Positions 5,530 through 41,553 of a stretch of 64,000 bases of DNA are shown piece after piece (position 1 is the stretch's first letter; each line of letters opens with the position of its first letter). Where the stretch lies: assembly GCA_003665825.1 (NCBI GenBank), contig QPFY01000005.1:186001-250000 (forward strand), read 5' to 3'. The notes beneath the pieces are model-generated. The model saw nothing but the letters and a program-made list of their open reading frames with translations. It was not told the DNA's origin and made no database searches. This DNA comes from Microbotryum silenes-acaulis. Taxonomy: Eukaryota; Basidiomycota; Microbotryomycetes; Microbotryales; Microbotryaceae. The translations under genes were made by a program, and so were the position numbers.

Positions 5530-5766
5530 CGTACCACTTCCTCTCTTTCTCCTTTTCCACCTCCCCCTCCCTCTTCTTCTTCTTTCTCTTCCCCTCCCTC
5601 TTCTCCTTCCCCCCCCCCCCCCCCCCTCCCCTTTTTTTTCTTTCCCTCTCCTCTTTTCTTTTTTTTCTTTCTTCCTCCCCCCCCCCCCCCTCCCCCCCCC
5701 CTTTTTTTCTTTTTTTTTCTTTCTTTTTCTTTTCTTTGCTTTTCCTCTCCTTCCCCCCCCCCCCCC
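5530..5766. repeat. Pyrimidine-rich low-complexity tract
   Basis: About 240 bases of almost pure C/T on the plus strand, including several C runs of 9-18 and T runs of 8-9. No coding meaning; the lysine/glycine-rich frames on the other strand are artefacts of composition. Such tracts can form triplex or i-motif structures and are difficult to sequence, so the run lengths should not be trusted. Confidence 0.95.
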
Positions 5767-6124
5767 GACATGGGTGCGGGCCCAGTCTTCCCAGTCATTT
5801 GCAGTAATCCTAGATACTGATAGGAACCACGCTTTCCAAGGGAAAGCGCGTCGCGTACGAACAGAGATTATCAACCCAGTACGCTGGCACGTTGGGTGAT
5901 GAGGATTGTCTTAGCTCTAGGAGCGAGACGCGGTACTCAATGGCAAGAGGCACGGCTACGCTTGGCAGGCGTAGGGCGGAGGACAGAGGGCAGTTGTCCA
6001 AACAGTCTGGCAGAGACTGATGCGGGTGCGTCCGTGATCGCTGAAGAAGGTCCTTGGCAGGAGGGTGGCAGAAATACATCAGCGATGAAATGGTACCCTG
6101 CAACTTGACTGGCTTCACCGGCTA
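5767..6124. other. No gene recognised
   Basis: Unique sequence between the pyrimidine tract and the left edge of the segmental duplication. Short frames exist on both strands but none shows a motif, splice structure or homologue elsewhere in the window. Confidence 0.5.
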
Positions 6125-6670
6125 ACTTGGTTCCGCTCGCGCGCTCTACGAAGGATTCGAAGGCGACGTCGCGCATCCAGCCATTCGAAACCACCCGCGG
6201 TGCTACACTGCTTCTTCAAGACGAAACGCTCGCGGGCCCGAGGAATCAGAATTCCCGGCGCCCGCGCTTTGTCTAAACGGACATCTATATTGTGATTGTG
6301 GTCATCTAGTAGCTGGAATTACCGCACCGAGTGGATGCGAGGAGTCCTTGAACCTCTCGCTCTCGCCAAGCTCGCGCCCAGACCATTTCGTTGACCAACC
6401 CTTCAGCTCTACCCTTCAGCTCTAGCTGAGAGAGCTCCAGGGATTTCATTAATCATTGTCATTCGTCAGAGTCGTTCATATCAAAAAATTGGACAACCAA
6501 CAACCGACTACTGAGCTAAATTCTTGTTAACTGGCAAGGTGGTAAGACTGAAGAGGGCCCTTCTCCGCTGGGCTCGAGGTGGTACAACCGAGCCATACTT
6601 TGCGGCTCGCCATCGAGAAGCCAATCCTTGCTCGGACGCGCGCCATCGTCGTCGACCACCATGTTCTGAC

Positions 6671-7511
6671 ACAATCGCTTTTTCGACCCCTTTAAATCGC
6701 CCCGTCGATTGCGGGTGGGCCAACCTATTTTTTGTGCCAACTGATCTGAGCGAGCCAGCCGATTGGTTGTGGCACGGGCAGTTTTTAAGGCGCACGTTAC
6801 TCCAAGCTCCAGGAGAATATAATCATATGTTGAGTACGATAGTCGCAACGGCTGTTACGGAGTGTCAACCAAGCCATTCAGTTCCTACAACGCTCTCTCG
6901 CCGGCGATGAAGACGTTCTTCTCCACTCTGACGGCCACGCACTGCACGAGGCCGGCATGTTACGCATCCAATCGCAACGACACGGTTTCAAGCTGCACAC
7001 CGCCTCCCGAGGAGGTCTGGACAACGTGGGCGACCAACTGCGTGCTTCGCACCCGGTCATCCGCACCAGCCCGGCACGGGCTTGAACGGCCTCTTCGTCA
7101 ACCAATACTGCACGACCAAGATTGGCCAACTCACCTTCGACAAATCCAAGGCGTTACTTGCATACCTCTTCATGCTTCGAGCGCAAAGTCACGACGCTCA
7201 ATTTCGCTAGGGATGGAAGAAATATGACCTCGCCGCATGGGACAACCGATCGACCAACCGTGGTGCAGTGAGCAGACCTTTATGCTGACTCTTGATTGCC
7301 CTGGATAGCTTGGAACACTGACGTTGATCTCATCTCTGCCGCCGCTACCTTTGACCGATGAGCTCCAACAGGGCGATCAAGCCGTCTACGGCCATCACCA
7401 CTGGTGGCGGCGGGGGGTGAGTCGCAATTGTGCAGTTGCGACGGCTGCATCCTCGAAGTCCCAGAGGGCAATATTTCTATGTCAGCAATGCTATATTGCA
7501 GGAAATGACAC
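6671..7511. other. Copy-1-specific 0.84-kb insertion
   Basis: Relative to duplication copy 2 (join near 35066), copy 1 carries 839-841 extra bases. They are bracketed by a TGACAC direct repeat (6667-6672 and 7506-7511) that looks like a target-site duplication. No terminal inverted repeats are visible. The cargo is a broken TauD-like dioxygenase (separate entry). Insertion of a gene-carrying element in copy 1 is more economical than an exact deletion in copy 2, but deletion by recombination between short repeats is possible. Confidence 0.65.
6862..7275 (+). pseudogene. TauD/TfdA-like 2-oxoglutarate dioxygenase fragment
   Basis: Three frames together give an ordered match to the C-terminal half of fungal TauD-type Fe(II)/2-oxoglutarate dioxygenases. 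They are, in order: NALSPAMKTFFSTLTATH; then HEAGMLRIQS...ASHPVIRTSPA in a second frame; then TGLNGLFVNQYCTTKIG and LLAYLFMLRAQSHDAQFR; and, after a stop, WKKYDLAAWDNRSTNRGA. In the family the TG-x-LFVN and WDNRS-x-H/N-x-A segments surround the 2-oxoglutarate-binding Arg and the distal metal-binding His; here the residue after WDNRST is Asn-Arg rather than the usual Phe-His. The N-terminal H-x-D half is absent. Frame changes and an in-frame stop make it a pseudogene. The recognition rests on remembered family motifs. Confidence 0.65.
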
Positions 7512-7615
7512 GAGTGTTTCAATCGGAGATAATTGACTATGGGACTCCATCTCGAGATGAAAATACTACCTAAAGCAAAAGTCGTAACTGTGGGTGTCTC
7601 GGGGTCGATCGGCGT

Positions 7616-9955
7616 CTACGGGCCGCGCTGATGTTCATTCACCCCTGTGTTGTTAGACTGCGGAGGAACACGGCCCCAAATTCCATCCATGAATGTTGTA
7701 GAAAACCAAGGTGCATCAAGAGCGCAGCTATGAACGAGAGCGAACTTGCGAAGAACGTGAGTAAGTGAACAGGGAGAGAGTTGCCGTTCAACTTACATTC
7801 GGCCTCCGGCGCGTCCTTCAGGCATAGCAGGCGCCTCGGGGCCCAACAACGCCTCGGGCTCCCCAGCGAATCTGCCCCAGTGATTCTCGACATTAGCGTT
7901 GGTCTCCAGCGACAGTCACATTCGTACCCGCTCCACTCACAAGGCGACCAAACGACCGAGGTTGCTTGTCATTGTTATCACTGCGGCGTCCGTCTCCTTG
8001 GCGGCTAGAACGAGGTCGCGAATCACAGCGCGCGCGCTTGCAACCCGCACTGCTAGTGGCAGATTGTCGAAAGACTTTTGTACAAAAGTATAGTGGGCAG
8101 GCAGGTCGACGTTAGGGGTACGATCAAATATGAAGGGGGCGGCGATGGCGTCATAGGCCATCTGCTCTAGCGCATCGTCCTCGATCGTCAGGAGGATGGC
8201 GCGCGGCTGCTTCTCGATCGAGAAACGACGAGCCGTTGGGGAGAGGGGATAGCAAGGCTTGGCTTGTGACAATGAACAGCTGACCATACGATCGTAGAGG
8301 CCGTGCATAACCTCCAGGTGTGCGCTCAGGTTCCCGCTGCGCGAGGGGGGGGGGCAGGGGTTAAAGAAGGCTAAAAATGTGTGGACAGGCAGTGCCGGGA
8401 TTACTGCCAACCCATCGCTCACAAGGTATTGTTGATGAACCGGGTGCTCCTGTCATATTCTGTCCGTTTGTCGCCCAATCGGACTTGGACCGCGATTGTC
8501 GGGTATTCGCCTCCGATGCGCATCATCGCCTTGACCCTTTCAACGTCGTCCAGTATTGCCGGCACGGGCTTGAGCAGGTTAGGTAAGAGCTTGGCGTACT
8601 CCTCGAAAGCGGGTATCAACGGGCGTGGAAGAGTGTACGAGGGCGGCAACACACTGGGACGGGTGGTGTGATTGAACAGCGCCCGTTGCACCCTCTGCAA
8701 TTCAAAACTCTCCCGTTCGTAGAAGAGCTCATGATCAATGACGTCTGTGCTGTCGTCTATGGAAAACCTGATCCGATCGGCCGTTCTCCAGCCGGGGTTC
8801 CAGGCGGGTATGGCCTTCGTTTCGTCGTACCAGTCTTCCGGGGGAACGCAATCGATTGTGTAGGGCTCGAAGTAGTACTCTAATCGACCATACCCCCTAA
8901 ACGAGTTGAGGTGATTGTGAGCATATCATGCCAGTGCAAGTCAATTTAGCGTGGCAGCAGGTTCTGTGGGCTCGGGTCTTTATCAAGTACGCGCTGTCGC
9001 GGTACAAGTACTCACCATCCATAACTGTTGTCAACCAATAGGGCGATGCCCATTTTTTTGGCAAACATGGCCCCCCGGAGCTGCGGTGTACAGGCAAAGC
9101 AAAGCTGTCGCTATCGTGAGCCTCAAAGCCCGGGGTAGGAATTGTACCTCGCTCAATTGGCCAACCGCGGTACAGCTTGGAGATTGTGCTGGACCGACGC
9201 ACCATGAACAAAAGGTTTGAACCAATACCTCCGCGTCGAAAGGGTGTGAGAATGAAACGTCCGCAAGGTGGAAGACGGCTAGCATCGTCCGAAAGTCGCC
9301 ACACTGCTATGTGCGAATCCTTCGGATCATCCACGGCGAAGGTGGAGCTGTTCGCTGGTGGCGGCGGGCGACGCACCGTAATCGACGCTGGGTACATGTC
9401 CTCCAAGGGTGTGGATGTGCCACCCGCTCTATAGATGCTGTTGGTGGCCGATAGTCTGATCGTTTGGACGGCGAGTGCGATCGTGAGCCCGAGCAGGCTG
9501 CCGTATAGAAGCCCAGGGCGAGAGGGCCTTTCTGGGACAGCCGCATCAGAGAGCCCGCCGTTTCCAGTCCTGCTGTGGAGCCACTTCTGTAGAAATCGGA
9601 ACAAACACAACTGTGAGGAAGGAAAGGAGCCGAAGCGCCTAAGCAGTTCGTTAGCGACGCCGGACCAGGAAACACGCCAATCTGCTGACGGGCTCACCGG
9701 AACAGTCCGGGTCATGCTGTGCGTCCGCTGCCGAACAAGTACTAGCAGACGGCGAACAGATCCACTCCATAACCCGCTTTTCTTGCTTGCTGCGTAGTAC
9801 GGGGACCCGATCCCTTGCCTCGTCAACTCCGTGAGCTCGTCATCTCCTGAGCCCGAGTCCACGCTCCTACGCACACCTTCCTCGACGAGTTCGTACTGAT
9901 CGCCGCTGTCGTCTTGGCAGGGGGGGCCACGATCGCGGGTCGCGTGCTCAACCAT
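7616..9955 (-). CDS. Fucosyltransferase-like type II membrane glycosyltransferase, copy A1
   Basis: Seven exons (9955-9698, 9610-9203, 9080-9016, 8896-8423, 8336-7941, 7871-7797, 7727-7616) give an uninterrupted 595-residue protein; every phase closes. It has a cytosolic N-terminus of about 110 residues, one membrane anchor (LLYGSLLGLTIALAVQTIRL) and a lumenal domain. That domain contains a glycine loop GGIGSNLLFM, RGAMFAKKMGIALLVDNS, IAVQVRLGDKRTE and, near the end, AVITMTSNLGRLVAL and CALDAPWF. A V-x-H/Q-x-R-x-GD loop plus a late Ser-x-x-x-R-L segment is the architecture of fucosyltransferase-fold enzymes using GDP-sugars, so a Golgi glycan-modifying role is inferred. Here Gln replaces the usual His in the R-x-GD motif. 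The ATG at 9955 was chosen because copy 2 conserves the downstream frame, not the upstream one. Donor and acceptor sugars are unknown. Confidence 0.75.
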
Positions 9956-10595
9956 GCTGCCAACGATCGATACAGTGCCAGGTCGTCGAAAGAGTCGATG
10001 CGAACAGGTGGTAAGTGGTAAGCGGTCCAGTGACCAAAAGTGAATTATTTTGGAAGGATAGGGCAACTGCGACTTCCCGAGACAAGCTAGTCTAGCGCCG
10101 AGTTTCAGGCGGTGACTCTACCCGACCTCTAAACAGGAGAACACGCGTAGACAGGCGTAGCCACAACGGACGCCCCCTGAGGCCGGCTCACGAGGACCCT
10201 GCACCGGGGCCGAGCTCCTAGTAGTAGACACGGATCGTGAAATTGCTTACATGAGGATACATGTCGTTTGAAGCAGCAAAACCCGTCACTTTTTCCGGAC
10301 CTAACTGACAAACCAACGGGTAATCCAGTTATTTGGCAAGGTGACCGAGTACCGGACTGTCCGTCCGTTCCGAGACTCTGACCCGCTTGACCCGCTTTCT
10401 CGTCCAAAGAGGACCATCGAAGATTGTCGGTTGCACTTGGTATTTGAATTCGCAATGAACGACAGCTTCTACTTCGTCTAAGATCAACAGGAGTATGTAT
10501 AGAACGGAGCTCGGACACCCGCCGAGAGAAAACATTGCGGTCATGGCCGTTTGATGAGGCATCCCGATCAAGCAGAAGTCAATACAGTGCACTCA

Positions 10596-11933
10596 TCAGG
10601 GCTCGTTTGTCGCCGTTTTCATCTGGACCTCTGGAAAAATTTCGATGATCATTTGCACAAAGTCGACGTTACGACCCGAAGCGAGGACAAGTGAGCGACG
10701 GGTCGAGTCCCGGTACTTGTTCGGCTCATCCGCTCCTTCTACAATTGTTAAGCCTTTCAGAGGGGTGATGAGATGGGCATGTGCACCAAAACTTGACTCC
10801 CCAAGCAAGATGACGTCGTTGTCGGCCAGCGAAAAAAGGCCCGCCAATGAGTTGCCGGTGTCGACGAGTGTGTAGTGCTTAAAGTCGAAAATTCAGAACG
10901 GTCGAGTTGGCGTTCTCCATCACGACCCGAATGTCGAGCTCGGCGAATGCTGCGCGCAGTTTGGAAATGATATCGTTGATGTGGGAGAGCTGCTCAAGCC
11001 GCGGGGTGCTTCCATCGTTCCTTCATACATCGCTGCGTCTCCCCATCGGATATGTACCCCCACAAGAGAGCGCGTTTCGACTCGCGGCATTACCTGGCGG
11101 CAGGGGTCGCTCCAGCCTACGGCCATCCAGGGCGCCAATCCGCTGCCGTACAAATAATATCTTAGTATTGGAGCAGTACTTTATCTTATCTAATGCTCCT
11201 TATAATAACTCACTTCTAGTTCTTAACGCTTCACTCCTTTTTTAAAAATAAGTTGCGGTAACAGTCGTTGAGATCTTCAAAAAGTTCCCTCACAACGTCA
11301 TCAAGAATAATGGCGCGTCCCCGCTGATCCATCCGCCGTTTCACTGCAGGCCCATATTCGTACCTCGAGCCCACTCGACTGCAAGCCCCTCTGACCACGG
11401 CGTCTCGATGAGCTTGGGGCAAGTAGTCCAAACACTCGCAAATGATCAGCTTCATTTACTGTACTCATTGGACAGAGGGATTTGGGATGCGGCGTACCAG
11501 AGATGCGACATATTCTGCCGGCGGGGACTTGCCAAGCCTCGACATCGAGCGCGCCAAATCCTTTGGGGTTCAGGACCTCGTCGTGGTAGTAGCCATGTTC
11601 GGACAGCGTTTCCCCGAGGACAAAGGTCGAGTCAAAAAAGATGGAAAGGATGATGCCACCCTTGATGCGCTGCAGTGTTGAGCCAATGCCCTCCTCGTTC
11701 GCGACGGAGCGGATCCACAAGCGTGACGTCTCGCCGATCTTGGCAGATGGAGAGTGCCCTCCGTCTTTCCATGAATAGGCCATTTGCTCCGATGTTGATT
11801 TATCATGAAGGAAGGTGGCGAGCAGTAAGTTGCTGACAAAACCAGAGACCACACCGACGAGGAGAGCCGCCTTCGCCGTTGGTGGCCACATGCCAACCAC
11901 GTTGCGCACTCGCATCCTGGCCGACCCCCTCAT
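10596..11933 (-). pseudogene. Broken glycosyltransferase B (fucosyltransferase-like)
   Basis: Starts with a clear ATG and a signal anchor (ALLVGVVSGFVSNLLLATFL). A lumenal domain follows with EGIGSTLQRIKGGIILSIFF (compare GGIGSNL of gene A1), later SLVGVHIRWGD, then LVDTGNSLAGLFSLADND and GESSFGAHAHL. VGVHIRWGD is a textbook GDP-fucose-type R-x-GD motif, and the late D-x-x-x-x-GESSF segment fits the same fold. The reading frame breaks at least three times (near 11450, near 10985 and near 10890) and is interrupted by a 94-base AT-rich insertion at 11158-11251. The gene is absent from the equivalent place in duplication copy 2. It lies head-to-tail with A1 and is a distant relative rather than a recent copy. 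Confidence 0.7.
11152..11251. mobile_element. AT-rich 94-bp insertion in glycosyltransferase B
   Basis: An AT-rich block inside GC-rich coding sequence. On the coding strand it splits ...DLNDCYR from LYGSGLAPWMAV. TTATTT (AAATAA on plus, 11152-11157 and 11246-11251) stands at both ends like a target duplication. Inside, GGAGCA (11170-11175) and TGCTCC (11194-11199) form a small hairpin. Too short to classify; it could be a miniature element or a solo terminal-repeat remnant. Confidence 0.5.
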
Positions 11934-12514
11934 ATCTAGTGGACATGTAGTTGAGCTACGAATGCCTTCAGCATCCTATTGCGGCTGCGTATGTGAAGAC
12001 AGAACGTCATCGAGGGTTACGAGGGTAATAGAGTACTGACTGCACGTGTGGCGACGTACCAGCAGTGATTCCGACTCGGCGTGTAAATCGTGCTGACACA
12101 GATCATCGACGTCATCGACTGAGCATCGACACGAATGCGTCTGTTGCAGTTCCATCGACTGTCGGCGGGCGAAAGAGGGTGGAAGGAGACAAGAACCAGC
12201 CTCGGGCTGCGGGTGTGAGACTAGTCCCAACGGTGACGACATGGCTGTTTCTACGGCCCACCTGACTGTGCACGGGCTGTTTCTGATCGTCTATCCTATC
12301 CACGTAAGACAATCCCGGACAGCTAAGGTTCGACGAAGGCTGACACGAACCACGATCCTACTTTATTTGCGGTAGTTGTAAAAAACACCCATATCGAATC
12401 AATCCTCGACGTCATAGAAACAGGTAAAGCCTTAACGTTTTGACCGAATGGCACCTTGTCCTTCTCGACGAACGTCCTTGGCCGACCCCCCAGGCGGCCC
12501 CAGCGCGCCCGTCG

Positions 12515-12748
12515 AGCTATGTGAGGGGTGCGCCCCTCCCACGGGCCCTGCCCACAACTGAGACAACTTGCTCTCCTCTCGTTTGAATAGATTTGTCACA
12601 GTACCTTTGAATAGTCTTCTTTCCTTTAGGCAACTTAGACAACTTAGACGACTTAGAGGAGATCAACCTGGAACGAACCGAACACGTCAACAGTCGATTG
12701 TAGCAGTTCTCGCGACCTTTGAGGGATCGAACCCTTACAAGCTATGTG
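12515..12748. mobile_element. Copy-1-specific insertion with 9-bp direct repeats
   Basis: Duplication copy 2 reads straight through one AGCTATGTG (near 38560), whereas copy 1 has two (12515-12523 and 12740-12748) with 216 bases between them. This is the form of an insertion with a 9-bp target duplication. The insert has a tandem AACTTAGAC-like repeat (near 12627-12657) and, on the minus strand close to its end, GGTTCGATCCC, which equals a pol III B-box consensus. No coding frame or terminal inverted repeat is visible. A SINE-like origin is speculation. Confidence 0.6.
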
Positions 12749-12869
12749 GATCAGCTCGGGCTCGGAGCTCAGAGTGCCGAATGTACGAACACGCAAGGCC
12801 ACGATGTGTGTGGTCAACTGAAATGCATTGCGATGGTTCAGAGCCCAACTTCTTACCCACGCCTTGATC

Positions 12870-15405
12870 CTACACCTCCTTCCGGGCCCAATCGACCATC
12901 CTTTCTCCGACCCCGCCCACGACGCCTCGAACCCATTCCCTCTTCTTCCCTTGTCCACTGAACGTCACCGTCTTGGCCACGACCAAAGGCGTATTGTACA
13001 TGACCCTTTTGATCCCAAGTCTCAACTTTTCGCGCCTCGAAGGCGTGCGAAGGACAATGAAGAGCAGGAAGGCGTAGATGTAGCGGTCAAGATGGGAGAG
13101 GCTATCGAACGCTGGATGATGGGGCACGGCGAATCGGACGGACGGCGGTTTGCCCGCTGACCTTAACCGTGTTGTGGTCGAGCTAGAAGATCGATTCGGG
13201 TTCCCCCTCAGCGTCGATGCCTTCGATGCGTCCAGAGAAGAATCGGCGAAATGCACATGCCCTTCGCGGGTGATCGTCGCCGCCGTCGCTGCCTTCGAGC
13301 TGATCGAGGACTCTAACGTTCTTTCCTTCATCGCCATCCGCGTTTGCGCGACCCTCGGGTTCCTCAAGGTCACCAGCCTCAACAAGACTCGAACGACGAA
13401 CTCGATTCTCGCCTTGAGGTTGCGATGCAAACTCAGGAATCGCAACGCAGCTAGGTAGGTCAACGTGCGAACCAAGTCTCGCTTCCTTCGACGCTCATGG
13501 TGAGGTCGAGGGACTTTGGTCGGATCGACGGAACGGGACGGGACGACGGCGGGATAGCCGTAGTAAGGGTTCGAGATATTGTAAGGGGAGAGATCGGTCT
13601 GTGACCCTCCTAACCGAGCTGAAGACAGACGCGATGCGTGGAGGTACATGTGTCGTCGAGAAGGGGAGACGTCCCTCGAAGCGGCGCGCGAGGAGAAGCA
13701 TGAGGATCGCGCCGAGGTCACCGTCGATCCGATTCGGCTGGCCCCTTCTTCCCCTTCGCCCCCTGCTCCATCTTCCTCTTCACCGACCAAACTTGTCCCA
13801 CCGCTAGACAGAACCGTTTCCGGACCTTCGGTACCCTCCTCCCTGAAACTCGTCTCTTCGGGAATGTCGTCCGCTTCCGACCCGGAATCGTCAGACTGGA
13901 TCGCCGCCTGAGTAGCCGCCAGTCGTTCTTGAAGGTCGGCAAAGCTCGTCACCCTTCGTAGAGCCCCGGCGGCACCGGAAGCGATAGTCGTAGGGGTCAA
14001 AGCCCCCGAGCCCAGACCATTCGATTCGTGTCGAGTCTGTTCAACCGCTTCTCCAGGCGAAGTGTCGCTCGCGAGGGGATCATGGGCAGTCGCTGCAGGG
14101 GTGGCTCGAGGACTCCGTCGCCAAAGGGTCGGAATGAGCAGAGCGAAGCCTCTCAGCCTACTCTTGGTCGGCGTCACGGTCTGCTTCGAAGTCAGAGGTG
14201 TGGTCGAAGTGATGGGTGAAGCTGGTAGCAACTGAACGCCTGGTAGTGGACTTGTCGCTGAGGACGGTGAGCTCGCTTGCGTGTGGGACGAAAGTTCGAG
14301 CGAGGCTTTCTGCAGCGGGGATGCCGGCGTCATGAGCATATTTCTCGGTGCTCGGATCGAAGGGTTCTCGTTCGTGGAGGAGCGACGCGAATGTCCTGGT
14401 GTCGTTGCTCTCAAGTTCGTGGCTGATTGGAAGACGTCAGAATGCAAGGTCGAAGAAGAAGGTGAGAGGGAAGGTGATGGTGAAGGGTAGGCGCTCGTGC
14501 GCGGCGAATTCGGAGCCGAGCGAAGTGCCGGGGCAAGAGGTGTCGGGGAATAAGTGGTGAAGATGGGATTTACCGGCGTGTATTCATAGTCGACCTTGCC
14601 TCCGTGTTCTGAACGAGAATTGTGTTAGTCGTCGTCGGTTTGTATGCTAATTAGTGCAACTCTTGTCAAATTCAGAACTGACCAATTAGTAGATGGTCTT
14701 CGTCAAAAAACTCGAGGAGATCCGTCTTGGTCGGGAACAGGATTCTCTCGAGCGCAGTCTTGGGCAATACGCGCTTTGCGAGCTGCCACATTCCGGCGTA
14801 CATCCAGCCGTAGTTGAGGACAAAGACTGCAAAAGGGACTGAGGTCAGATTGCTCATCGTGCCGCCGAGTTTGGATGGTCGTTCGCGTCACTCACTAGCA
14901 CCGACCATGCCAGGAAAGTGCTGCTTGAGCATGTCCATAAAGAATGGCAGCAGCTCAACTTCCTGTTGGACGACCGCAGACGCGCCACATTAGCCTTGTA
15001 ATAAAAGCCGCCTGGGGAGAGAAGCAGACTTGTTCCTCACCAGATTGGCCATCCCTGCGCCTTCGAGATCGACGATCATCACGATCTGCAACATGACCTG
15101 GTCCTTGCCTTCTTCTTCCTGCCTATCCGCCTCTTTACTGAGTGCGGTCAACCACTTCCGTGCAACCTCCCACCCGAACTTGACAAAGTTCTTGAGCTCG
15201 TCCAGCTGGCCATCCTCGGTCCTCGTTACGCGTCGGAGATTGAGCACCCCACACGGGCGACCGAAGCGGTCCCTCAACGAAGGGTGGAAGAAGAAGAGTG
15301 GCGTTTCGAGGTAGATGGGGTCGATCGATTGGTGGCTCAGCGAGGTGAAGGACGACGACAAGCGGAACGAGAGCGTCGCCTGCAAGAGCTTGTAAGCTGC
15401 CGGGG
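12870..15405 (-). pseudogene. Sec14-like (CRAL-TRIO) gene, 5'-truncated copy
   Basis: Almost identical to the intact gene at 38687-41553 from the middle of exon 2 to the stop codon, with the same introns and an uninterrupted 525-codon last-exon frame. Everything upstream of 15405, including exon 1 and the promoter, is missing and replaced by LINE sequence. A frame runs from the LINE side (about 15556) across the junction into the CRAL-TRIO domain (...DYLRLQAAPAAYKLLQATL), so a fusion protein is formally possible, but it would lack the first ~85 residues and has no recognisable promoter. The few differences from copy 2 include missense changes (for example Lys/Asn in VLPKTA versus VLPNTA). Confidence 0.8.
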
Positions 15406-18260
15406 CCGCCTGGAGACGAAGGTAGTCAGGTACATGAACCGCGTCGATGGTCTGTCTCCCTCTGATGGGGGTGTGAAGGCTGCCGAGGCGGAAAGACAAG
15501 TCCTTGCCAGATCGCGCCAGAACCGCCGAGAAGAACGTCCCAGATCCGTGCCGCAACCGCGTCCACGACGTCCTGCATCCTGATCACCCCCAGTCCCCCC
15601 TTGAGCTTGGCTGTGAACACGATGTCTCTGCCGTAGCTGGTCCTGCCCTTGCCCCCACGGACGAAATCGACGAGCATGTCATCGAGCTTCTTGACGACTT
15701 CGGGCGGCGGGATGTCGGCTGCAAGGAAGTGCAGGATCTTGGGGATGGCGTACCGATTGACGTAAAAGGCACGGGTGTGGTGCGTGAGCCAGCGATGCTG
15801 GACCGCCTCCAGCATTGCCTCGAGGCGTTCGATGAGATTCGCGTAGGCGAGTTCGGTGTCGCCGCTGGGGTCGAAGGGGAGGCCGATCCACTCGAGCGAC
15901 TCGCCTGCGGCCTTGACGACGAGCGGGCGTTCCCCCGGGTCCCAGCGGCGTCCGATCGGTAGGACGACCGTCTTGTCCGTGTTGAGCCGGCCATTCGTTG
16001 CCTGCCTCCAGTCGAGCGCCAGGTCATCGAGCAAGTTGAGTGACTCCAAGCCCGCGACGGCGACGACAACGTCATCGGCAAATGCAAGTGATGTAATGGC
16101 GCGGCTCTGTGGGTACGGATAAAGGGCAGGGATTGCAAGATTCAGCGCGATGTTTCGACGGTGTAGAGCATCCAGGAACGGCTGAAACACGATGTCCCAG
16201 ACCGATGACGACGCCGGGTCCCCTTGGCCGAGCCCACACGTCAGTCGCACCGGCGCCGTCAGGAACCCATTGATGATGTAGCGAGCCGAGGTCGAGTCAC
16301 CCGAGTAGAGCATCCTCAGCACGCGAAGAAAGATGGCAGGAGCGCCCAGAGCGTCGAAGATGGCAAAGATCCAGTCATGCTCGACGAGGTCGTAGGCGGA
16401 TGATTGGTCAAGAGACAAGAGCGCGGCCATGGGGAACTCGGTCCTGCGCGCACCAAGTTCCTCGACCAGGAGACGAAGGTGTAGCGCAGCGTCGGCCGAT
16501 CGGCGGTCCTTGACGAATCCGTGCTGCTGCGGCGGGAGGAGATCGGGCAGAAGGTGGTTGAGTCGGGCGACGTAGACCTTGGTAAAGATCTTGTAATCGC
16601 ACTCGCGCAGGGTGATGGGGCGATACGACGAGAGTTCGGCGCGATCGGCATTCTTTTTGTGGCGCTTGAAGATGAGGCGCACGAGTCCCTGGCCCTGCTT
16701 GGGAGAGAGTGAACCGCGCTCGATCATCGCGTTGTAGGCCTTGGTCAGCACCTTGGACCACGCCTCGGGTGCGGTCTGGTAGAGTTCGTAAGGCACGCCC
16801 GACGGTCCCGGCGATCGCCCCGGGTGCGTCGTCCCGATCGCGGCCACGACCTCGTCCTCGGTGATCGGTCGCTGGAGTAAGTCGATCTGCGATTCCGAGA
16901 GTCGGCGCAGAAAGAGCGGATCCGAGCGCGGGTCGTCGCAAGTCCGCGCCGCCCTGATCGGCGCGAGGAATTCGTCCCGAAGTCGAGCGACGCGGTCCGG
17001 GTCGCGAGGCTCGATGTGGTAGAGGCGCTGAAAATGCGCCTGCGTGTGGTCAAGAGCAATATCAATGTCATGCGTTAGCTCTCCGCTGCTCAAGCGCAGT
17101 GCTGTGATCTTGGAGTCCGAGTTCCGCGCCGCGAGCTTGGCGTGGACCGGCCGCGACAGTCGTTCCTCGGAAGCGATCTCGGGGACGTGGGCTCGGATCC
17201 GGAGTAGGCGCGCGCGCTCCTCGACCGCCCGCTTGAGTTCCTCGGACGTCCTCGTCCATTCTGCCGTTTCCTCCGCCCCCCATACCAGTAACGCCTCCAG
17301 ATCCTGCACCCTCCTCACCAAATACTCCATGCGTTCCGACCGCTCCCAATGCAGCCTCCTCGCCAGCTCACCACCCCTGTCCTTGCACGCCTCCAAAATC
17401 TCCTCGAGCTCCCGCACCGGTTCCTCCCCGCCTGCCCCTTCCAACCATCCTTCCATCATCCGCTGAAATTCCACCGTCTTGAAAGTTGTGGTGTTGATTT
17501 GATGAAGTTGGTTTGATGTGGTAGGTAGGCTACGCTGTGGGAGAGCCGCATCAAGATCGTCTGAGAGAGCCAGCACGATCAGGACCGGCCGGTGATCGGA
17601 GAGCTCCTTGGGATAGTCGTAGATCGTCGAGGCCTGGTCGAGCCTTTTCTGGTGAGTTCGTTGTAGGAGAAAGTAATCAAGCCGGGAAAATGAGTTGGGT
17701 CGCTTGCGATTGGGGTTGGGTCGAGTGAAAGATGGGGTGATGGGGTGCTTGTAGCGGATGCAGTCCGTGTAGGCCGAGTTGAGCTTGCCGATCAGGATCG
17801 GCCAGTGGTGGTGGCGCCGACTTTGGTTCCGCCGATCGACTTCTGGGCGCGGGCAGTCCTTGAGATCGCCGCCAAGGAGTCGGAGGTGGGATTTCTGTGT
17901 TTCGTGGAAGATCACTTTGTCGAAGAATTTTGCTCGTTGTTTTGGTTCAACGGGCGCGTAGATGTTGTTCATTTCGAAAATTTTAGTGTCGCCCCGCAGA
18001 CGAAAGGAGGTGACCAGGATCCGTCCGTTGAGTGCCGAGTGGGTGCGCAAGAGCTCGGCGTCGATCAGGGGGGAGTCAGCCGGAATCAGAGTCAGACAAT
18101 GTTGGTTGATGAAGAGCTTGCCCTCGTACTCGTCCTTGATGAGTTGACAGAGGTGCGGTCTGATGAAGTGCTCTTGTACGAGAATGGCCGATGCTTTGAA
18201 AGTGGATAGGTAAGCGTAAATGTTGCGTCGTTTCTCCGGGACCCCCATGCCCCTCAATTG
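15406..18260 (-). mobile_element. Tad1-like LINE, ORF2 endonuclease and reverse transcriptase, truncated at both ends
   Basis: One frame of about 920 codons covers an APE-type endonuclease ([40 protein letters not shown]) and a reverse transcriptase ([41 protein letters not shown]). The protein is clearly related to ORF2 of the LINE at 19.6-23.7 kb but much diverged. The first residues of the endonuclease (the W-N-V start) are missing at 18257, directly next to another element's A-rich tail. The 3' part after the polymerase is missing at the duplication junction. In the catalytic G-D-x-N motif the Asn is Lys (GGDLKDC), so the endonuclease is probably inactive although FADD is intact. There is no ORF1. 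Confidence 0.85.
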
Positions 18261-23704: not shown

Positions 23705-23706
23705 TA
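23702..23706 (-). promoter_or_regulatory. TAATG stop-start between LINE ORF1 and ORF2
   Basis: The ORF1 stop TAA (23706-23704) and the ORF2 start ATG (23704-23702) share one A. UAAUG overlap is the arrangement shown to support coupled termination-reinitiation in the insect LINE SART1, so the same mechanism is inferred for making ORF2 protein from this bicistronic RNA. The two frames are otherwise unrelated. Confidence 0.85.
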
Positions 23707-33938: not shown

Positions 33939-34404
33939 GTCGGCGGGCACACAGGGTGCACAGCTACTCGTGAAGGAGCAGGCTGCTGGCGGAGTCTGAG
34001 ATCGCGCGACCGCGCACCGCGATTAACTTTGGGCCACCTTGGTTGATCGAGTAGACGTCGCGCGTTTGGCAGCCATTCTAAACCACCCGAGGTGCTACAC
34101 TGCTTCTTCAAGACAAGGCGCTCGCGGGCCCGAGGAATCAGGATACTCGGCGCCCGTGCTTTGTCTAAACGAGCATTATATTGTGTTTACTAGCTGGAAT
34201 TACCGTACTGCGTGGCGGCGAGGAATCAATGAACCTCACTTGCTCGCGCCAACTTAGCTCGCGCCCCGGCCATTTCGTTGACCAATCCTGCAGGTCTTAG
34301 TAGCTGAGCTGAGAGCTCAAAGGATTTTATTTGTCGGTCTCATTGATAAGAAGTCGTCCATCTCAAACAATTGGGACAGCCAATAACCGAATATTGAGCT
34401 AGAT

Positions 34405-34915
34405 TCGTGTATAACCTTCGTCTAAAAAAATGGTGGCAGGGAACGGCGGGAAATAGACAGATCTGCCAAGGACTGGCCACGCTACCTTTTTCATGAACTT
34501 GAAGACGAAACTGCCTTCTTCAAAACGTATCAAAGCCCTCGTAATATCAGCTTCTTCAGTTACATGATACCTCGTCAAAGCGACTTTACATCCAAAATTC
34601 GCCATGGCTGCGGGCGTGTGATTCGGTGCCACTGGTGACCGGGCGGATTCTCTACTTAGGGACTAAGTTCGGCTGGAACTCGGCCACTACTTCCGCTGAG
34701 AACACAACGTAGAACTTACAAGCTGCAGGTGTTTAATGAGTCCGAAGCCCTACCCGGGAGTCATCTTTCAATTTGGCTTCGCCGCCCATCTCTATGTGGG
34801 TTTTTGGTAGCCTGGACTGCGAGTCTCCTGAGTCCTCGAGAATTCCGCTGACCTACTGCAATGCCAGCCAAACGAAGCCTCAGGCTCAATTTGTGCAGCC
34901 GAGTCGAACGAGCCC
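34405..34915. other. Copy-2-specific extra sequence
   Basis: Copy 1 passes from a segment matching 34390 to one matching 34920 within about 45 bases, so roughly 0.5 kb is inserted here or deleted there. It includes a 77-codon minus frame (34399-34632; MANFGCKVALTRYHVTEE) of unknown nature. No terminal repeats were found. Confidence 0.5.
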
Positions 34916-35232
34916 CTCCGTACAGCGGCAAGGTTGCGAGAATGAAGAGGGTCCCTCTCCCCTGGGCTCGAGGTGGTACAACCGAGGCATACTTTGCCGC
35001 TCGCCGTCGAGAAGCAAATATGTTGCCCCGGCCGGACGCGCGCCATCGTCGTCGACCACCATGTTCTAACGAGTGTTTCAATCGGAGAAAATTGACTGTG
35101 AGGCTCCATCGCGAGATAAAAATACCACCTAAAGTCAACCGAACTCGTGGGTGTCTTGGGGTCGATCAGCCCGCGCTGATGTACAATCACCCCCAGTACC
35201 ACGCTGTTAGACTGCGGAGGAACACGGCGCTG

Positions 35233-37541
35233 TTATACTTTCGGAGGAACACGGGCCCAGATTCCATCTAGGAATGAGGTAGAAAACCAAGGCGCATCAA
35301 GAGCGCAGCTATGAACGAGAGCCAAATTGTGAAGAACGTGAGCAAGTGAGCTGGAGAGAGTTGCCCGAGCCGTTCAACTTACATTCGGCCTCCGGCGCGT
35401 CCTTCAGGCATAGCAGGCGCCTCGGGGCCCAACAACGCCTCGGGCTCCCCAGCGAATCTGCCCCAGTGATTCTCGACATTAGCGTTGGTCTCCAGCGACA
35501 GTCACATTCGTACCCGCTCCACTCACAAGGCGACCAAACGACCGTGGTTGCTTGTCATTGTTATCACTGCGGCGTCCGTCTCCTTGGCGGCTAGAACGAG
35601 GTCGCGAATCACAGCGCGCGCGCTTGCAACCCGCACTGCTAGTGGCAGATTGTCGAAAGACTTTTGTACAAAAGTATAGTGGGCAGGCAGGTCGACGTTA
35701 GGGGTACGATCAAATATGAAGGGGGCGGCGATGGCGTCATAGGCCATCTGCTCTAGCGCATCGTCCTCGATCGTCAGGAGGATGGCGCGCGGCTGCTTCT
35801 CGATCGAGAAACGACGAGCCGTTGGAGAGAGGGGATAGCAAGGCTTGGCTTGTGACAATGAACAGCTGACCATACGATCGTAGAGGCCGTGCATAACCTC
35901 CAGGTGTGCGCTCAGGTTCCCGCTGCGCGAGGGGGGGGGGGGCAGGGGTTAAAGAAGGCTAAAAATGTGTGGACAGGCAGTGCCGGGATTACTGCCAACC
36001 CATCGCTCACAAGGTATTGTTGATGAACCGGGTGCTCCTGTCATATTCTTTCCGTTTGTCGCCCAATCGGACTTGGACCGCGATTGTCGGGTATTCGCCT
36101 CCGATGCGCATCATCGCCTTGACCCTTTCAACGTCGTCCAGTATTGCCGGCACGGGCTTGAGCAGGTTAGGTAAGAGCTTGGCGTACTCCTCGAAAGCGG
36201 GTATCAACGGGCGTGGAAGAGTGTACGAGGGCGGCAACACACTGGGACAGGTGGTGTGATTGAACAGCGCCCGTTGCACCCTCTGCAATTCAAAACTCTC
36301 CCGTTCGTAGAAGAGCTCATGATCAATGACGTCTGTGCTGTCGTCTATGGAAAACCTGATCCGATCGGCCGTTCTCCAGCCGGGGTTCCAGGCGGGTATG
36401 GCCTTCGTTTCGTCGTACCAGTCTTCCGGGGGAACGCAATCGATTGTGTAGGGCTCGAAGTAGTACTCTAATCGACCATACCCCCTAAACGAGTTGAGGT
36501 GATTGTGAGCATATCATGCCAGTGCAAGTCAATTTAGCGTGGCAGCAGGTTCTGTGGGCTCGGGTCTTTATCAAGTACGCGCTGTCGCGGTACAAGTACT
36601 CACCATCCATAACTGTTGTCAACCAATAGGGCGATGCCCATTTTTTTGGCAAACATGGCCCCCCGGAGCTGCGGTGTACAGGCAAAGCAAAGCTGTCGCT
36701 ATCGTGAGCCTCAAAGCCCGGGGTAGGAATTGTACCTCGCTCAATTGGCCAACCGCGGTACAGCTTGGAGATTGTGCTGGACCGACGCACCATGAACAAA
36801 AGGTTTGAACCAATACCTCCGCGTCGGAAGGGTGTGAGAATGAAACGTCCGCAAGGTGGAAGACGGCTAGCATCGTCCGAAAGTCGCCACACTGCTATGT
36901 GCGAATCCTTCGGATCATCCACGGCGAAGGTGGAGCTGTTCGCTGGTGGCGGCGGGCGACGCACCGTTATCGACGCGGGGTACATGTCCTCCAAGGGTAT
37001 GGATGCGCCACCCGCTCTATAGATGCTGTTGGTGGCCGATAGTCTGATTGTTTGGACGGTGAGTGCGATCGTGAGCCCGAGCAGGATGCCGTATAAGAGC
37101 TTAGGGCGAGAGCGCCTTTCTGGGACTGCCGCACAGAGCGAGCCTTTTCCAGTCCTGCTTTCGAGCCACTTCTGTAGAAATCGGAACAAACACAGTTGTG
37201 AGGAAGGAGAGGAGCCGAAGCACCTAAGCAGTTCGTTAGCGACGCCGGATCAGGAAACACGCCAATCTGCTGCCGGGCTCACCGGAACAGTCCGGGTTTT
37301 GCTGTGCGTCCACCGCCGAACCGTTACTAGCAGACGGCGAACAGATCCACTCCATAACCCGCTTTCCTTGCTTGATGCGTAGTACGGGGACCCGATCCCT
37401 TGCATCGTCAACTCCGTGGGCTCGTCATCTCCTGAGCCCGAGTCCACGCTCCTACGCACGCCTTCCTCGATCTCGATGAGTTCGTACGGATCGCCGCTGT
37501 CGTCGTGGCAGGGGGCCACGATCGCAGGTGTGCTCAACCAT
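35233..37541 (-). pseudogene. Glycosyltransferase copy A2 (probably damaged)
   Basis: Same seven-exon plan as A1 at 7616-9955. Exons 2-6 (about 37195-36791, 36668-36604, 36484-36011, 35922-35527, 35457-35383) are nearly identical, but exon 1 and the last exon are diverged. The C-terminus is shorter and different (...GIWARVPPKV). Two lesions: exon 1 has two fewer C in a homopolymer just after the start (7 in A1, 5 here), which breaks the frame before a well conserved stretch; and the intron-1 acceptor CACAG of A1 reads CACAA. Another AG 24 bases downstream (CTACAG) would keep frame and remove eight residues before the membrane anchor. The R-x-GD motif reads VRLGDKRKE. If the homopolymer is a sequencing error, this is a working gene. 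Confidence 0.6.
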
Positions 37542-38686
37542 GCTGCCAACGATCGATGCCGGGTCGTCGAAAGAGTCGATGCGAATTGGTGGTAAGTGGT
37601 AAGCGGTCCAGTGACCAAAATTGAATTGTTTTGGAAGGATAGGGCAACTGCGACTTCTCGAGACAAGCCATTCTACGCCGAGTTGCAGGCGGTGACGCTA
37701 CCCGACCTCTAAACAGGAGAACAGGCGTAGACAAGGCTAACGGACGCCGCTGACGCTGGCTAACGGACGCGCCCGAGGTCGGCTCAGGAGGACCCTGCAC
37801 CGGGGCCGAGCTCCCGACCTAGTAGTAGACACGGATCGTAATCTTTTTTACATGAGGATACATGTCGTTTGCAGCAGCAAAACCCGTCACTTTTTCCGGA
37901 CCTAACTGACAAACCAACGGGTAGTCCAGTTATTTGGTAAGGTGACCGAGTACCGGCGGACTGTCCGTTCGTTCCAAGGACTCGGACCCGCTACCACGTC
38001 CGGAGAGGACCATCGGCGATTATTGGTCGCACTTGATTCTTGTATTCACACTGAGCGACAGCTTCTAGTCCGTGTATGATCAACAGGATTATGTAAAAAA
38101 GGGGGCTCGGACACCCGCCGAGAGAAAACATTGCCGCCATGGCCGTTTTACGAGGCGTGCAGAAGTCGATGCAGTGCAATCATGCTGACATAGACCTTCG
38201 AAGTCATCGACTGAATACCGACACGAGTACGCTGCTGCAATTCAATCGACTGTCGACGGGCGAAAGAGGGTGGAGGGAGACAAGAACCAGCCTGGGGGGG
38301 GGTGAGGCTACAGTAGTCCCAACGGTGACGACATGGGTGTTTCGAGGGCCCTCCTGACTGTGCACGAGCTGTTTCCGATCGTCTCTCCTATTCACGTAAG
38401 ACGATTCGGACTGCTAAGGTTCTACGAAGGCTGAACACGGAACCGCGATCCTACTTTATTTGTGGTACGTCGAAGAAATTTCCATATCGAACCTCGACGT
38501 CATAGAACAGGTAAGGCCTGAACGTTTTTTTGACCGAACGGCACCTTGTCCGTCGAGCTATGTGGATCATCTCGGGCTTCGGAGCTCGGAGTGCCGAATG
38601 TACGAACACGCAAGGCCACGATGTGTGTGGTCAACTGAAATGCATTGCGATGGTTCAGAGCCCAACTTCTTACCCACGCCTTGATC

Positions 38687-41553
38687 CTACACCTCCTTCC
38701 GGGCCCAATCGACCATCCTTTCTCCGACCCCGCCCACGACGCCTCGAACCCATTCCCTCTTCTTCCCTTGTCCACTGAACGTCACCGTCTTGGCCACGAC
38801 CAAAGGCGTATTGTACATGACCCTTTTGATCCCAAGTCTCAACTTTTCGCGCCTCGAAGGCGTGCGAAGGACAATGAAGAGCAGGAAGGCGTAGATGTAG
38901 CGGTCAAGATGGGAGAGGCTATCGAACGCTGGATGATGGGGCACGGCGAATCGGACGGACGGCGGTTTGCCCGCTGACCTTAACCGTGTTGTGGTCGAGC
39001 TAGAAGATCGATTCGGGTTCCCCCTCAGCGTCGATGCCTTCGATGCGTCCAGAGAAGAATCGGCGAAATGCACATGCCCTTCGCGGGTGATCGTCGCCGC
39101 CGTCGCTGCCTTCGAGCTGATCGAGGACTCTAACGTTCTTTCCTTCATCGCCATCCGCGTTTGCGCGACCCTCGGGTTCCTCAAGGTCACCAGCCTCAAC
39201 AAGACTCGAACGACGAACTCGATTCTCGCCTTGAGGTTGCGATGCAAACTCAGGAATCGCAACGCAGCTAGGTAGGTCAACGTGCGAACCAAGTCTCGCT
39301 TCCTTCGACGCTCATGGTGAGGTCGAGGGACTTTGGTCGGATCGACGGAACGGGACGGGACGACGGCGGGATAGCCGTAGTAAGGGTTCGAGATATTGTA
39401 AGGGGAGAGATCGGTCTGTGACCCTCCTAACCGAGCTGAAGACAGACGCGATGCGTGGAGGTACATGTGTCGTCGAGAAGGGGAGACGTCCCTCGAAGCG
39501 GCGCGCGAGGAGAAGCATGAGGATCGCGCCGAGGTCACCGTCGATCCGATTCGGCTGGCCCCTTCTTCCCCTTCGCCCCCTGCTCCATCTTCCTCTTCAC
39601 CGACCAAACTTGTCCCACCGCTAGACAGAACCGTTTCCGGACCTTCGGTACCCTCCTCCCTGAAACTCGTCTCTTCGGGAATGTCGTCCGCTTCCGACCC
39701 GGAATCGTCAGACTGGATCGCCGCCTGAGTAGCCGCCAGTCGTTCTTGAAGGTCGGCAAAGCTCGTCACCCTTCGTAGAGCCCCGGCGGCACCGGAAGCG
39801 ATAGTCGTAGGGGTCAAAGCCCCCGAGCCCAGACCATTCGATTCGTGTCGAGTCTGTTCAACCGCTTCTCCAGGCGAAGTGTCGCTCGCGAGGGGATCAT
39901 GGGCAGTCGCTGCAGGGGTGGCTCGAGGACTCCGTCGCCAAAGGGTCGGAATGGGCAGAGCGAAGCCTCTCAGCCTACTCTTGGTCGGCGTCACGGTCTG
40001 CTTCGAAGTCAGAGGTGTGGTCGAAGTGATGGGTGAAGCTGGTAGCAACTGAACGCCTGGTAGTGGACTTGTCGCTGAGGACGGTGAGCTCGCTTGCGTG
40101 TGGGACGAAAGTTCGAGCGAGGCTTTCTGCAGCGGGGATGCCGGCGTCATGAGCATATTTCTCGGTGCTCGGATCGAAGGGTTCTCGTTCGTGGAGGAGC
40201 GACGCGAATGTCCTGGTGTCGTTGCTCTCAAGTTCGCGGCTGATTGGAAGACGTCAGAATGCAAGGTCGAAGAAGAAGGTGGGAGGGAAGGTGATGGTGA
40301 AGGGTAGGCGCTCGTGCGCGGCGAATTCGGAGCCGAGCGAAGTGCCGGGGCAAGAGGTGTCGGGGAATAAGTGGTGAAGATGGGATTTACCGGCGTGTAT
40401 TCATAGTCGACCTTGCCTCCGTGTTCTGAACGAGAATTGTGTTAGTCGTCGTCGGTTTGTATGCTAATTAGTGCAACTCTTGTCAAATTCAGAACTGACC
40501 AATTAGTAGATGGTCTTCGTCAAAAAACTCGAGGAGATCCGTCTTGGTCGGGAACAGGATTCTCTCGAGCGCAGTGTTGGGCAATACGCGCTTTGCGAGC
40601 TGCCACATTCCGGCGTACATCCAGCCGTAGTTGAGGACAAAGACTGCAAAAGGGACTGAGGTCAGATTGCTCATCGTGCCGCCGAGTTTGGATGGTCGTT
40701 CGCGTCACTCACTAGCACCGACCATGCCAGGAAAGTGCTGCTTGAGCATGTCCATAAAGAATGGCAGCAGCTCAACTTCCTGTTGGACGACCGCAGACGC
40801 GCCACATTAGCCTTGTAATAAAAGCCGCCTGGGGAGAGAAGCAGACTTGTTCCTCACCAGATTGGCCATCCCTGCGCCTTCGAGATCGACGATCATCACG
40901 ATCTGCAACATGACCTGGTCCTTGCCTTCTTCTTCCTGCCTATCCGCCTCTTTACTGAGTGCGGTCAACCACTTCCGTGCAACCTCCCACCCGAACTTGA
41001 CAAAGTTCTTGAGCTCGTCCAGCTGGCCATCCTCGGTCCTCGTTACGCGTCGGAGATTGAGCACCCCACACGGGCGACCGAAGCGGTCCCTCAACGAAGG
41101 GTGGAAGAAGAAGAGTGGAGTTTCGAGGTAGATGGGGTCGATCGATTGGAGGCTGAGCGAGGTGAAGGACGACGACAAGCGGTACGAGAGCGTTGCCTGC
41201 AAGAGCTTGTAAGCTGCCCGGGCCGAGAAGCGCGCTCGTCGGCAGAAGCGAAAGACCGTATCTGCACAAGAGATAGGAGGTCGAGCGAGTGTCAGTCTTA
41301 ATCTGAGGGATGGGCCCCGATGAAGTGGGCATACTCCAAGGTGCAGCAGGTGTGACTGACAGGGGTCATTCAGAAAGGCCTTGGCTGCCTTGATCGCCTC
41401 GTCCGAGAGGTCGAACTCGGCGCTCAACGACGCAACCAGTTCGTCAAGACAGTCGTTCTGGACCTGGTGCACAAGTGGGAGATGCTCGTGGTACTGCTGC
41501 GTGATGGCATCGTGGCGGGCTCGCAAGGATTCGACGGTCGCACCGCCGGTCAT
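38687..41553 (-). CDS. Sec14-like CRAL-TRIO protein with long disordered C-terminus
   Basis: Five exons (41553-41361, 41261-40858, 40779-40713, 40643-40500, 40425-38687), 848 residues, frame closes. Residues about 20-90 form the CRAL-TRIO N-terminal helices (LVHQVQNDCLDELVASLSAE, TVFRFCRRARFSARAAYKLL). The lipid-binding CRAL-TRIO domain follows to about 265 (IYLETPLFFFHP, VMLQIVMIVDLEGAGMANL, VFVLNYGWMYAGMWQLAKRV, DLLEFFDEDHLL, GGKVDYEYTP). It should exchange phosphatidylinositol or another lipid between membranes. The next ~330 residues are Ser/Thr/Pro-rich. A basic hydrophobic region near the end (TYLAALRFLSLH, YIYAFLLFIVLRTPSRREK) may contact membranes. The truncated copy at 12870-15405 is nearly identical, yet only this one has exon 1 and a promoter. 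Confidence 0.85.

What the first reader, a model, noticed from the sequence alone, without database searches (positions are those of the whole stretch)
6125..15405. Segmental duplication with near-identical tracts inside diverged flanks: a gene-conversion signature
Copies 6.1-15.4 kb and 34.0-41.2 kb are direct repeats. Within A1/A2 exons 2-6 (about 1.7 kb) and across the Sec14-like gene (2.6 kb, no length change) they are almost identical. The spacer between these tracts, exon 1, the last glycosyltransferase exon and the outer flanks differ by roughly 10-20% and by several insertions. A single recent duplication cannot give sharp identity steps; an old duplication followed by conversion of two tracts can.
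Basis: partly seen in the sequence, partly recalled or inferred. Interest (0 to 1): 0.75.

Follow-up and report, generated by a model that had tools for sequence, protein, structure and literature searches.

The report
Old duplicated genes partly re-copied recently
In an anther-smut fungus, two old copies of a gene pair lying about 28 kb apart have recently had two stretches overwritten from one to the other, so that a gene copy that has lost its beginning still looks almost perfect inside; this is a clean case of a well-known process, ectopic gene conversion.

Summary
Copy A (6165-15408) and copy B (34054-41225) are direct repeats with sharp identity steps. A two-state model gives 0.26% versus 12.9% difference. 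The near-identical tracts are T1 (A 7787-9375, 6 differences) and T2 (A 12776-15317, 5 differences). The genome is a Microbotryum species (Sec14-like protein 95% identical to M. lychnidis-dioicae).

Three results support ectopic gene conversion. T2 has diverged, collinear homology on both sides, so it is not a later pasted copy. Synonymous and non-coding sites are homogenised too. In the glycosyltransferase-like gene, A and B agree against M. silenes-dioicae far more often inside T1 than outside it.

Copy A's Sec14 gene is 5'-truncated and fused to a truncated LINE, yet over 99.7% identical to intact copy B within T2. T2 fills 95% of the homology left between an LTR-like repeat and that LINE junction. 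A second tandem pair of the family, on contig C10, hints at the same process.

Direction is unproven; B to A is likelier for T2. No reads were available. This is a good instance of a known process.

The parts
6165..15408 (.). Copy A of the segmental duplication (collinear with B 34054-41225, interrupted by indels)
34054..41225 (.). Copy B of the segmental duplication
7783..9379 (.). Tract T1 in copy A: 5 substitutions and one 2-bp indel against B 35369-36967
35369..36967 (.). Tract T1 in copy B
12772..15301 (.). Tract T2 in copy A: 4 substitutions, no indel, in 2530 bp against B 38589-41118
38589..41118 (.). Tract T2 in copy B
15302..15408 (.). Diverged right shoulder of T2 in A: 6 substitutions in 107 bp, ungapped, before homology ends
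12740..12771 (.). Diverged left shoulder of T2 in A (2 substitutions, 1 indel) between the LTR-like repeat and the tract
9380..10367 (.). Intermediate tier in A, 7.3% different from B, between T1 and an 18.9% zone (10368-10596)
7616..9955 (-). Glycosyltransferase-like gene, copy A; exons 9955-9698, 9586-9203, 9080-9016, 8896-8423, 8336-7941, 7871-7797, 7727-7616 (start and end inferred)
   Evidence: model guided by sister proteins
35233..37486 (-). Glycosyltransferase-like gene, copy B; exon 1a to 37283, then 37171-36791, 36668-36604, 36484-36011, 35922-35527, 35457-35383, 35308-35233; start codon uncertain (37486 is only where the codon comparison with A begins)
12870..15402 (-). 5'-truncated Sec14-like (CRAL-TRIO) gene copy A; exons 15402-15041 (broken), 14962-14896, 14826-14683, 14608-12870
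38687..41553 (-). Intact Sec14-like (CRAL-TRIO) gene copy B, 848 aa; exons 41553-41361, 41261-40858, 40779-40713, 40643-40500, 40425-38687
12520..12739 (.). LTR-like repeat in A only (TG..CA ends, 220 bp, AGCTA on both sides); a 49-bp A-only insert lies at 12462-12510
15409..18255 (-). Truncated LINE (endonuclease + reverse transcriptase) joined to the broken Sec14 exon 2; internal deletion near 15488
10597..12085 (-). A-only block with a second glycosyltransferase-like gene (HIRWGD motif), absent from B

Best explanation
A segment holding a glycosyltransferase-like gene and a Sec14-like gene was duplicated in direct orientation around, or slightly before, the split from M. silenes-dioicae. 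The copies diverged by point changes, indels, an LTR-like insertion, a LINE and loss of the 5' end of copy A's Sec14 gene. Much later, non-allelic homologous recombination without crossover (ectopic gene conversion) replaced two stretches, T1 and T2. T2 was most likely copied B to A, overwriting the inside of the truncated copy. The T2 ends lie close to the LTR-like repeat and the LINE junction, as expected if strand exchange is stopped by non-homology. Shown: tracts, steps on both sides, homogenised silent sites, changed clustering. Inferred: the conversion mechanism, the direction, and the order of truncation and conversion.
For: Two-rate structure, 0.26% vs 12.9%, 2dlnL 528, significant in each large block alone. 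T2 interior 4 of 2530 vs right shoulder 6 of 107 (P=7e-7) and vs left shoulder 3 of 33 (P=7e-5): both T2 ends lie in collinear diverged homology. Synonymous sites: Sec14 shoulder 3 on 24.8 vs tract 0 on 566; GT exon 1 Ks 0.085 vs tract 0.007 (P=7e-5 and 6e-4 on rounded counts). Non-coding DNA in the two tracts: 1 difference (an indel) in 729 bp. GT vs M. silenes-dioicae: outside the tract A=B against it at 11 sites and one copy agreeing with it at 19; inside, 35 and 3 (P=1.3e-6). A-B protein difference outside the tract (19 of 134, exon 1) is like B to M. silenes-dioicae (18 of 134); inside it is 3 of 396 vs 37 of 396 (from one search counts). The four T2 changes polarise as two on A and two on B, as expected after a recent common source.
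Against: No reads and no sister DNA, so an assembly effect is argued against but not excluded. The right T1 step is to 7.3%, not the full 13-20%, so that end is less sharp. In the clustering test most B-with-sister sites may be changes on copy A alone; of the listed sites only one (A in copy A and all four distant paralogs; T in B and M. silenes-dioicae) is a clean shared derived state. All four T2 substitutions are amino-acid changing, odd for a gene kept by selection, though four is few. The shoulders of T2 are short (32 and 107 bp).
Confidence: 0.87

Rival explanations
1. T2 is not a conversion but a second, recent duplication: a 2.6-kb Sec14 piece was pasted next to copy A during repair of a break and joined to the LINE.
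For: Copy A's Sec14 is truncated and abuts a LINE interior, as a one-sided copy-and-join event would give.
Against: The last 107 bp before the LINE junction carry 6 substitutions while the 542 bp before them carry none; a single pasted piece would be uniform. In the shoulder A also keeps states found in other species (P at one site in all three, H in M. lychnidis-dioicae). The left end runs collinearly into the 83% block once the LTR-like repeat and the 49-bp insert are skipped.
Confidence: 0.05
2. Purifying selection or low mutation rate keeps the tracts alike; nothing was exchanged.
For: Most of both tracts is coding by my models (1187 of 1597 bp and 2211 of 2530 bp).
Against: Synonymous sites (0 differences on 566 in T2, 2 on 284 in T1) and non-coding DNA are equally homogenised. 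The same T1 exons differ by 9% in protein from M. silenes-dioicae, and the copy A Sec14 gene has lost its start.
Confidence: 0.01
3. Assembly or polishing artefact (collapsed or cross-mapped repeat, or two haplotypes joined in one contig).
For: Near-identical repeats 26-28 kb apart are where assemblers fail; no reads could be examined.
Against: The tracts still differ by 9 substitutions and one indel, each copy has its own insertions, and the outer flanks are unrelated. Cross-mapping is not expected to erase about 13% divergence with ends inside homologous sequence. Flanking DNA is not duplicated as alleles would be.
Confidence: 0.04
4. The exchange was not paralog to paralog within one lineage: one copy's tracts came in from another strain or species by hybridisation and allelic recombination.
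For: Introgression in Microbotryum is mentioned in a passage of PMC10502011.
Against: In Sec14, A and B share 36 residues that differ from M. lychnidis-dioicae, 6 of them against one state common to all three other species, and in T1 they share 35 GT residues against M. silenes-dioicae, so neither copy's tract comes from one of those species. A close unsampled lineage is not excluded.
Confidence: 0.03

Closest known systems
Ectopic (non-allelic) gene conversion between duplicated genes, as in concerted evolution of tandem gene families (general knowledge, recalled)
   Same: Discrete near-identical tracts inside diverged paralogs, silent sites included, ends near large heterologies, clustering of paralogs within a species in the tract only.
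   Different: Here one recipient is very probably a truncated pseudogene, and the converted block is most of the homology left between two transposable-element boundaries.
Conversion among Copia/Ty3 LTR copies in Microbotryum (PMC10502011, passages seen)
   Same: Same genus, question of conversion between dispersed copies; the passage infers that conversion events are rare there.
   Different: Retroelement copies, not a duplicated cellular gene block; inferred from LTR divergence.
CRAL-TRIO / Sec14-like protein MVLG_05937 of M. lychnidis-dioicae
   Same: 95% identical to the copy B gene over 848 aa; a GT-like gene MVLG_05940 is numbered three genes away, with the same listed contig length.
   Different: One such protein entry was listed for each of three Microbotryum species; clustering at 90% could hide a second copy.

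Membership tests
Ectopic gene conversion tract | Sharp identity steps more extreme than a uniform rate allows | tested here: met
Ectopic gene conversion tract | Tract ends lie within collinear, more diverged homology on both sides | tested here: met
   T1 (13.0% left, 7.3% right) and T2; shoulders of T2 are short (32 and 107 bp)
Ectopic gene conversion tract | Silent and non-coding sites homogenised as well | tested here: met
Ectopic gene conversion tract | Paralogs cluster within the species in the tract but not outside it | tested here: met
   GT protein vs M. silenes-dioicae, P=1.3e-6; protein only, one sister sequence, counts include the sister's own changes, one clean shared derived site; no tree was built
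Ectopic gene conversion tract | One-way transfer (donor unchanged) and identified direction | tested here: inconclusive
   B intact and A truncated favour B to A for T2; nothing decides T1
Ectopic gene conversion tract | Not an assembly artefact | not testable with these tools
   no reads held
Sec14-like (CRAL-TRIO) protein | CRAL_TRIO domain PF00650 above its cut-off | tested here: met
   66.6 bits vs 22.6 for the first 293 aa of copy B
Glycosyltransferase (O-fucosyltransferase-like) | Match to a glycosyltransferase domain or solved structure | tested here: not met
   no relevant Pfam family in 9 of the 10 proteins, nor in window exons; no PDB sequence match; AlphaFold model too poor to use, mean pLDDT 36. 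The label rests on recalled motifs (VQVRLGDK, GGIGSN)
Solo LTR | TG..CA ends, multicopy, 5-bp target duplication | tested here: inconclusive
   12520-12739 has TG..CA ends and AGCTA on both sides, 18 further match rows. Of 8 other copies read by eye a 5-bp duplication was clear in 3, two of which have the same flanks; the ends are also inverted repeats, so a short DNA element is possible. No internal retroelement was sought

The most novel reading that the evidence does not exclude
In Microbotryum this glycosyltransferase-like family undergoes recurrent conversion of its central exons between live and dead copies. The shared core is kept uniform while the N-terminal stem and last exon vary, giving chimeric enzymes; the blocks that can be exchanged are set by transposable-element insertions.
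Probability: 0.2. Interest if true: 0.55.

Novelty: new member of a known kind. Interest (0 to 1): 0.33.

Why it matters
It is a compact natural record of one locus's history: duplication, transposon insertions, truncation, then conversion, each with its own divergence. It shows a truncated gene copy kept near-perfect inside by copying, which can mislead dating of duplications and gene annotation. If the pattern recurs in the family, it would link conversion to diversity of enzymes in a group of fungi whose glycosyltransferase set is reported as expanded (PMC4469406, passages seen).

Tried and rejected
Considered and rejected: uniform recent duplication, selection, later insertion of the Sec14 piece, alleles placed in one contig (outer flanks unrelated). 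I first took a stop codon in B's GT exon 1 as decay (note); distant paralogs align across that place as if an intron were removed, so B's GT is not shown to be broken, although its start codon is uncertain. I first took the 220-bp insertion for a tRNA-derived element with a 9-bp target duplication (notes); its TG..CA ends and 5-bp repeat make an LTR likelier, not certain. A plasmid search was empty. AlphaFold of the GT family failed (mean pLDDT 36), so no fold search was run. Linkage to mating type: three STE3 match rows lie on contig C6, two homeodomain rows on C6 and C10, none listed on the window's contig C5, so no mating-type explanation was pursued. Literature: 'Microbotryum' with 'gene conversion' 39 papers (15 listed), with 'ectopic gene conversion' 1, with 'segmental duplication' 8, and a wider search 24 (10 listed); no title or abstract start among those listed describes this locus.
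Full report
What was given.

Observation. Self-BLAST finds five collinear A/B blocks at 77, 85, 92, 83 and 99.5% identity; the only other pair longer than 80 bp (E 1e-10) is two LINE copies at 66%. The 100-column profile shows 98-100% at A 7801-9398 and 97-100% at 12761-15360, with about 74-96% in the other homologous windows and none in the rest. On 6607 aligned columns with 332 differences the longest identical run is 1365 bp; 20000 random placements never exceeded 280. A two-state model finds T1 at A 7787-9375 (6 differences in 1590 columns) and T2 at A 12776-15317 (5 in 2542), rates 0.26% and 12.9%, 2dlnL 528. Each large block alone also rejects uniform spacing. By exact differences T1 is 7783-9379 (5 substitutions, one indel) and T2 is 12772-15301 (4 substitutions). 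Their divergence does not differ significantly (6 in 1597 vs 4 in 2530, P=0.20), so they may or may not be of one age.

To the right of T1, 9380-10367 differs by 7.3% (71 of 973) and 10368-10596 by 18.9% (40 of 212); P=1.5e-6, with the boundary chosen by eye. The first zone includes 405 aligned columns upstream of the inferred start, 7.4% different. An older conversion would explain it; I have no independent test of that.

Organism. The Sec14-like protein of copy B (848 aa, five exons by my model) is listed as 95% identical to MVLG_05937 of Microbotryum lychnidis-dioicae, 91% to M. saponariae and 86% to M. intermedium. The M. saponariae entry carries what look like retained introns; over aligned residues copy B differs from M. 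lychnidis-dioicae at 43 of 848 and from M. saponariae at 42 of 848. It has a CRAL_TRIO domain. The window is therefore from a Microbotryum (anther-smut) species, by inference none of these three; I cannot name it. It lies in a 1.73-Mb contig of a 29.85-Mb, 88-contig assembly.

Genes. The first gene is called glycosyltransferase-like on recalled motifs only. Relatives occur in M. silenes-dioicae, M. lychnidis-dioicae, M. saponariae and M. intermedium (10 proteins), but no relevant Pfam family or solved structure matched the 9 that were tested. T2 covers the Sec14 gene from within exon 2 to its stop.

Copy A's Sec14 is truncated. A/B homology stops at A 15408 inside exon 2; exon 1 is missing. 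From 15409 the sequence is the inside of a LINE. 24 matches at 95-97% spanning the whole LINE stretch 15497-18255 were listed (40 of 184 candidates were scored), and many LINE rows lie in 1354-aa open frames. Against them the copy here appears to lack its 3' end and has an internal deletion near 15488. The first methionine left in frame lies well inside the domain. I infer a pseudogene; expression was not tested.

Why conversion. (i) Both ends of both tracts lie in collinear but diverged homology. For T2: 3 differences in 12740-12771 on the left, continuing into an 83% block once the 220-bp LTR-like repeat and a 49-bp insert are skipped, and 6 substitutions in 15302-15408 on the right. A recently pasted piece would not have diverged ends. 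(ii) Silent sites: Sec14 0 synonymous differences on 566 sites in the tract against 3 on 24.8 in the shoulder; GT 2 on 284 in the tract against 8.3 on 103 in exon 1. Non-coding: 0 differences in 319 bp of T2 and one indel in 410 bp of T1. (iii) Clustering with M. silenes-dioicae (P0047), gapped columns dropped: exon 1 outside the tract, 134 sites: A=B against the sister 11, B=sister 12, A=sister 4, all different 3. Last exon, 23 sites: 0, 2, 1, 1. Tract, 396 sites: 35, 1, 2, 0. Outside versus inside P=1.3e-6. Limits: one sister sequence, protein only, no tree; the 11 and 35 include the sister's own changes; alignment near the sister's internal repeat is doubtful; P0048 was not used in the count, and P0049 (M. 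lychnidis-dioicae) starts inside the tract and says nothing about the outside. (iv) Of seven Sec14 residue differences between A and B, the four in T2 polarise two to A and two to B (at one of them M. intermedium has a third state); the three in the shoulder include a P in A shared with all three other species, where B has R, an H in A shared with M. lychnidis-dioicae, and an F seen in A only.

Relative order (inference). A-B protein difference outside the tract (19 of 134) is like B to M. silenes-dioicae (18 of 134), so the duplication is about as old as that split or a little older. The LINE beside A is about 3% from its nearest listed relatives. The tracts differ by 0.16-0.4%. So conversion is most likely the latest of these events. 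T2 occupies 2530 of the 2669 bp of homology left between the LTR-like repeat and the LINE junction, which suggests those boundaries limited the exchange; with one locus this is suggestive only.

A second case. On contig C10 a tandem pair of the same family shows 11 of 313 differences in exon 3 against 50 of 414 in exons 1 and 2 (P=2e-5), with 27 of 144 in the two introns between; the exon 1 region of copy 2 shows stops and a frame change. Selection on exon 3 could explain part of it, but copy 2 looks dead. M. silenes-dioicae has two proteins alike over long stretches, and in M. intermedium one sequence carries two locus names; these may be recent duplicates or redundant contigs.

Against my reading. 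No reads; no sister DNA; the right T1 step is partial; all four T2 changes are non-synonymous; direction is undecided for T1. Only one site is a clean shared derived state of B with the sister.

Known or new. Ectopic gene conversion between paralogs is long known (recalled). In this genus, a passage of PMC10502011 says conversion among retroelement copies appears rare, and passages of PMC4469406 report an expanded glycosyltransferase set and a candidate fucosyltransferase in M. lychnidis-dioicae. My searches listed no account of this locus. I rate it a new member of a known kind.

Noticed in passing
G000:C10:231598-235087 (L043 3599-4987 vs 5691-7088): Tandem pair of the same GT-like family, 83.8% overall but 93-99% over about 300 bp of exon 3; copy 2 shows stops and a frame change in its exon 1 region. 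Candidate second conversion.
   Followed up: partly
15409-18255 and 19664-25917, minus strand: Two LINE copies (endonuclease + reverse transcriptase) between the duplicated segments; the second has long open frames of 1346 and 723 aa. The first belongs to a family with 24 listed matches spanning the whole stretch.
   Followed up: partly
12520-12739: Short 220-bp LTR-like repeat, TG..CA, with 18 further match rows in the genome; the full element was not sought.
   Followed up: partly
G000:C21:139158-142376 and 149380-152598 (L016, L015): Two copies of this repeat with the same flanks in the 320 bases shown, about 10 kb apart: another local duplication.
   Followed up: no
9380-10367: Intermediate tier of 7.3% A-B difference between T1 and an 18.9% zone; perhaps an older conversion.
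   Followed up: partly
10597-12085: A-only gene with an HIRWGD motif, 48-49% identical to proteins of M. saponariae and M. intermedium; lost from B or gained in A.
   Followed up: partly
6885-7390: 506-bp stretch in copy A without a counterpart in B, 85% identical to a place on contig C4 (repeat of unknown kind).
   Followed up: no
G000:C6:95k and 824k; C10:888k: Pheromone receptor (STE3) and a homeodomain match on contig C6, another homeodomain match on C10; C6 may be the mating-type chromosome.
   Followed up: no
54914-57360, minus strand: PDR-type ABC transporter gene (PDR_CDR, ABC_tran, ABC2_membrane); a carboxylesterase gene lies at 51532-52287.
   Followed up: no
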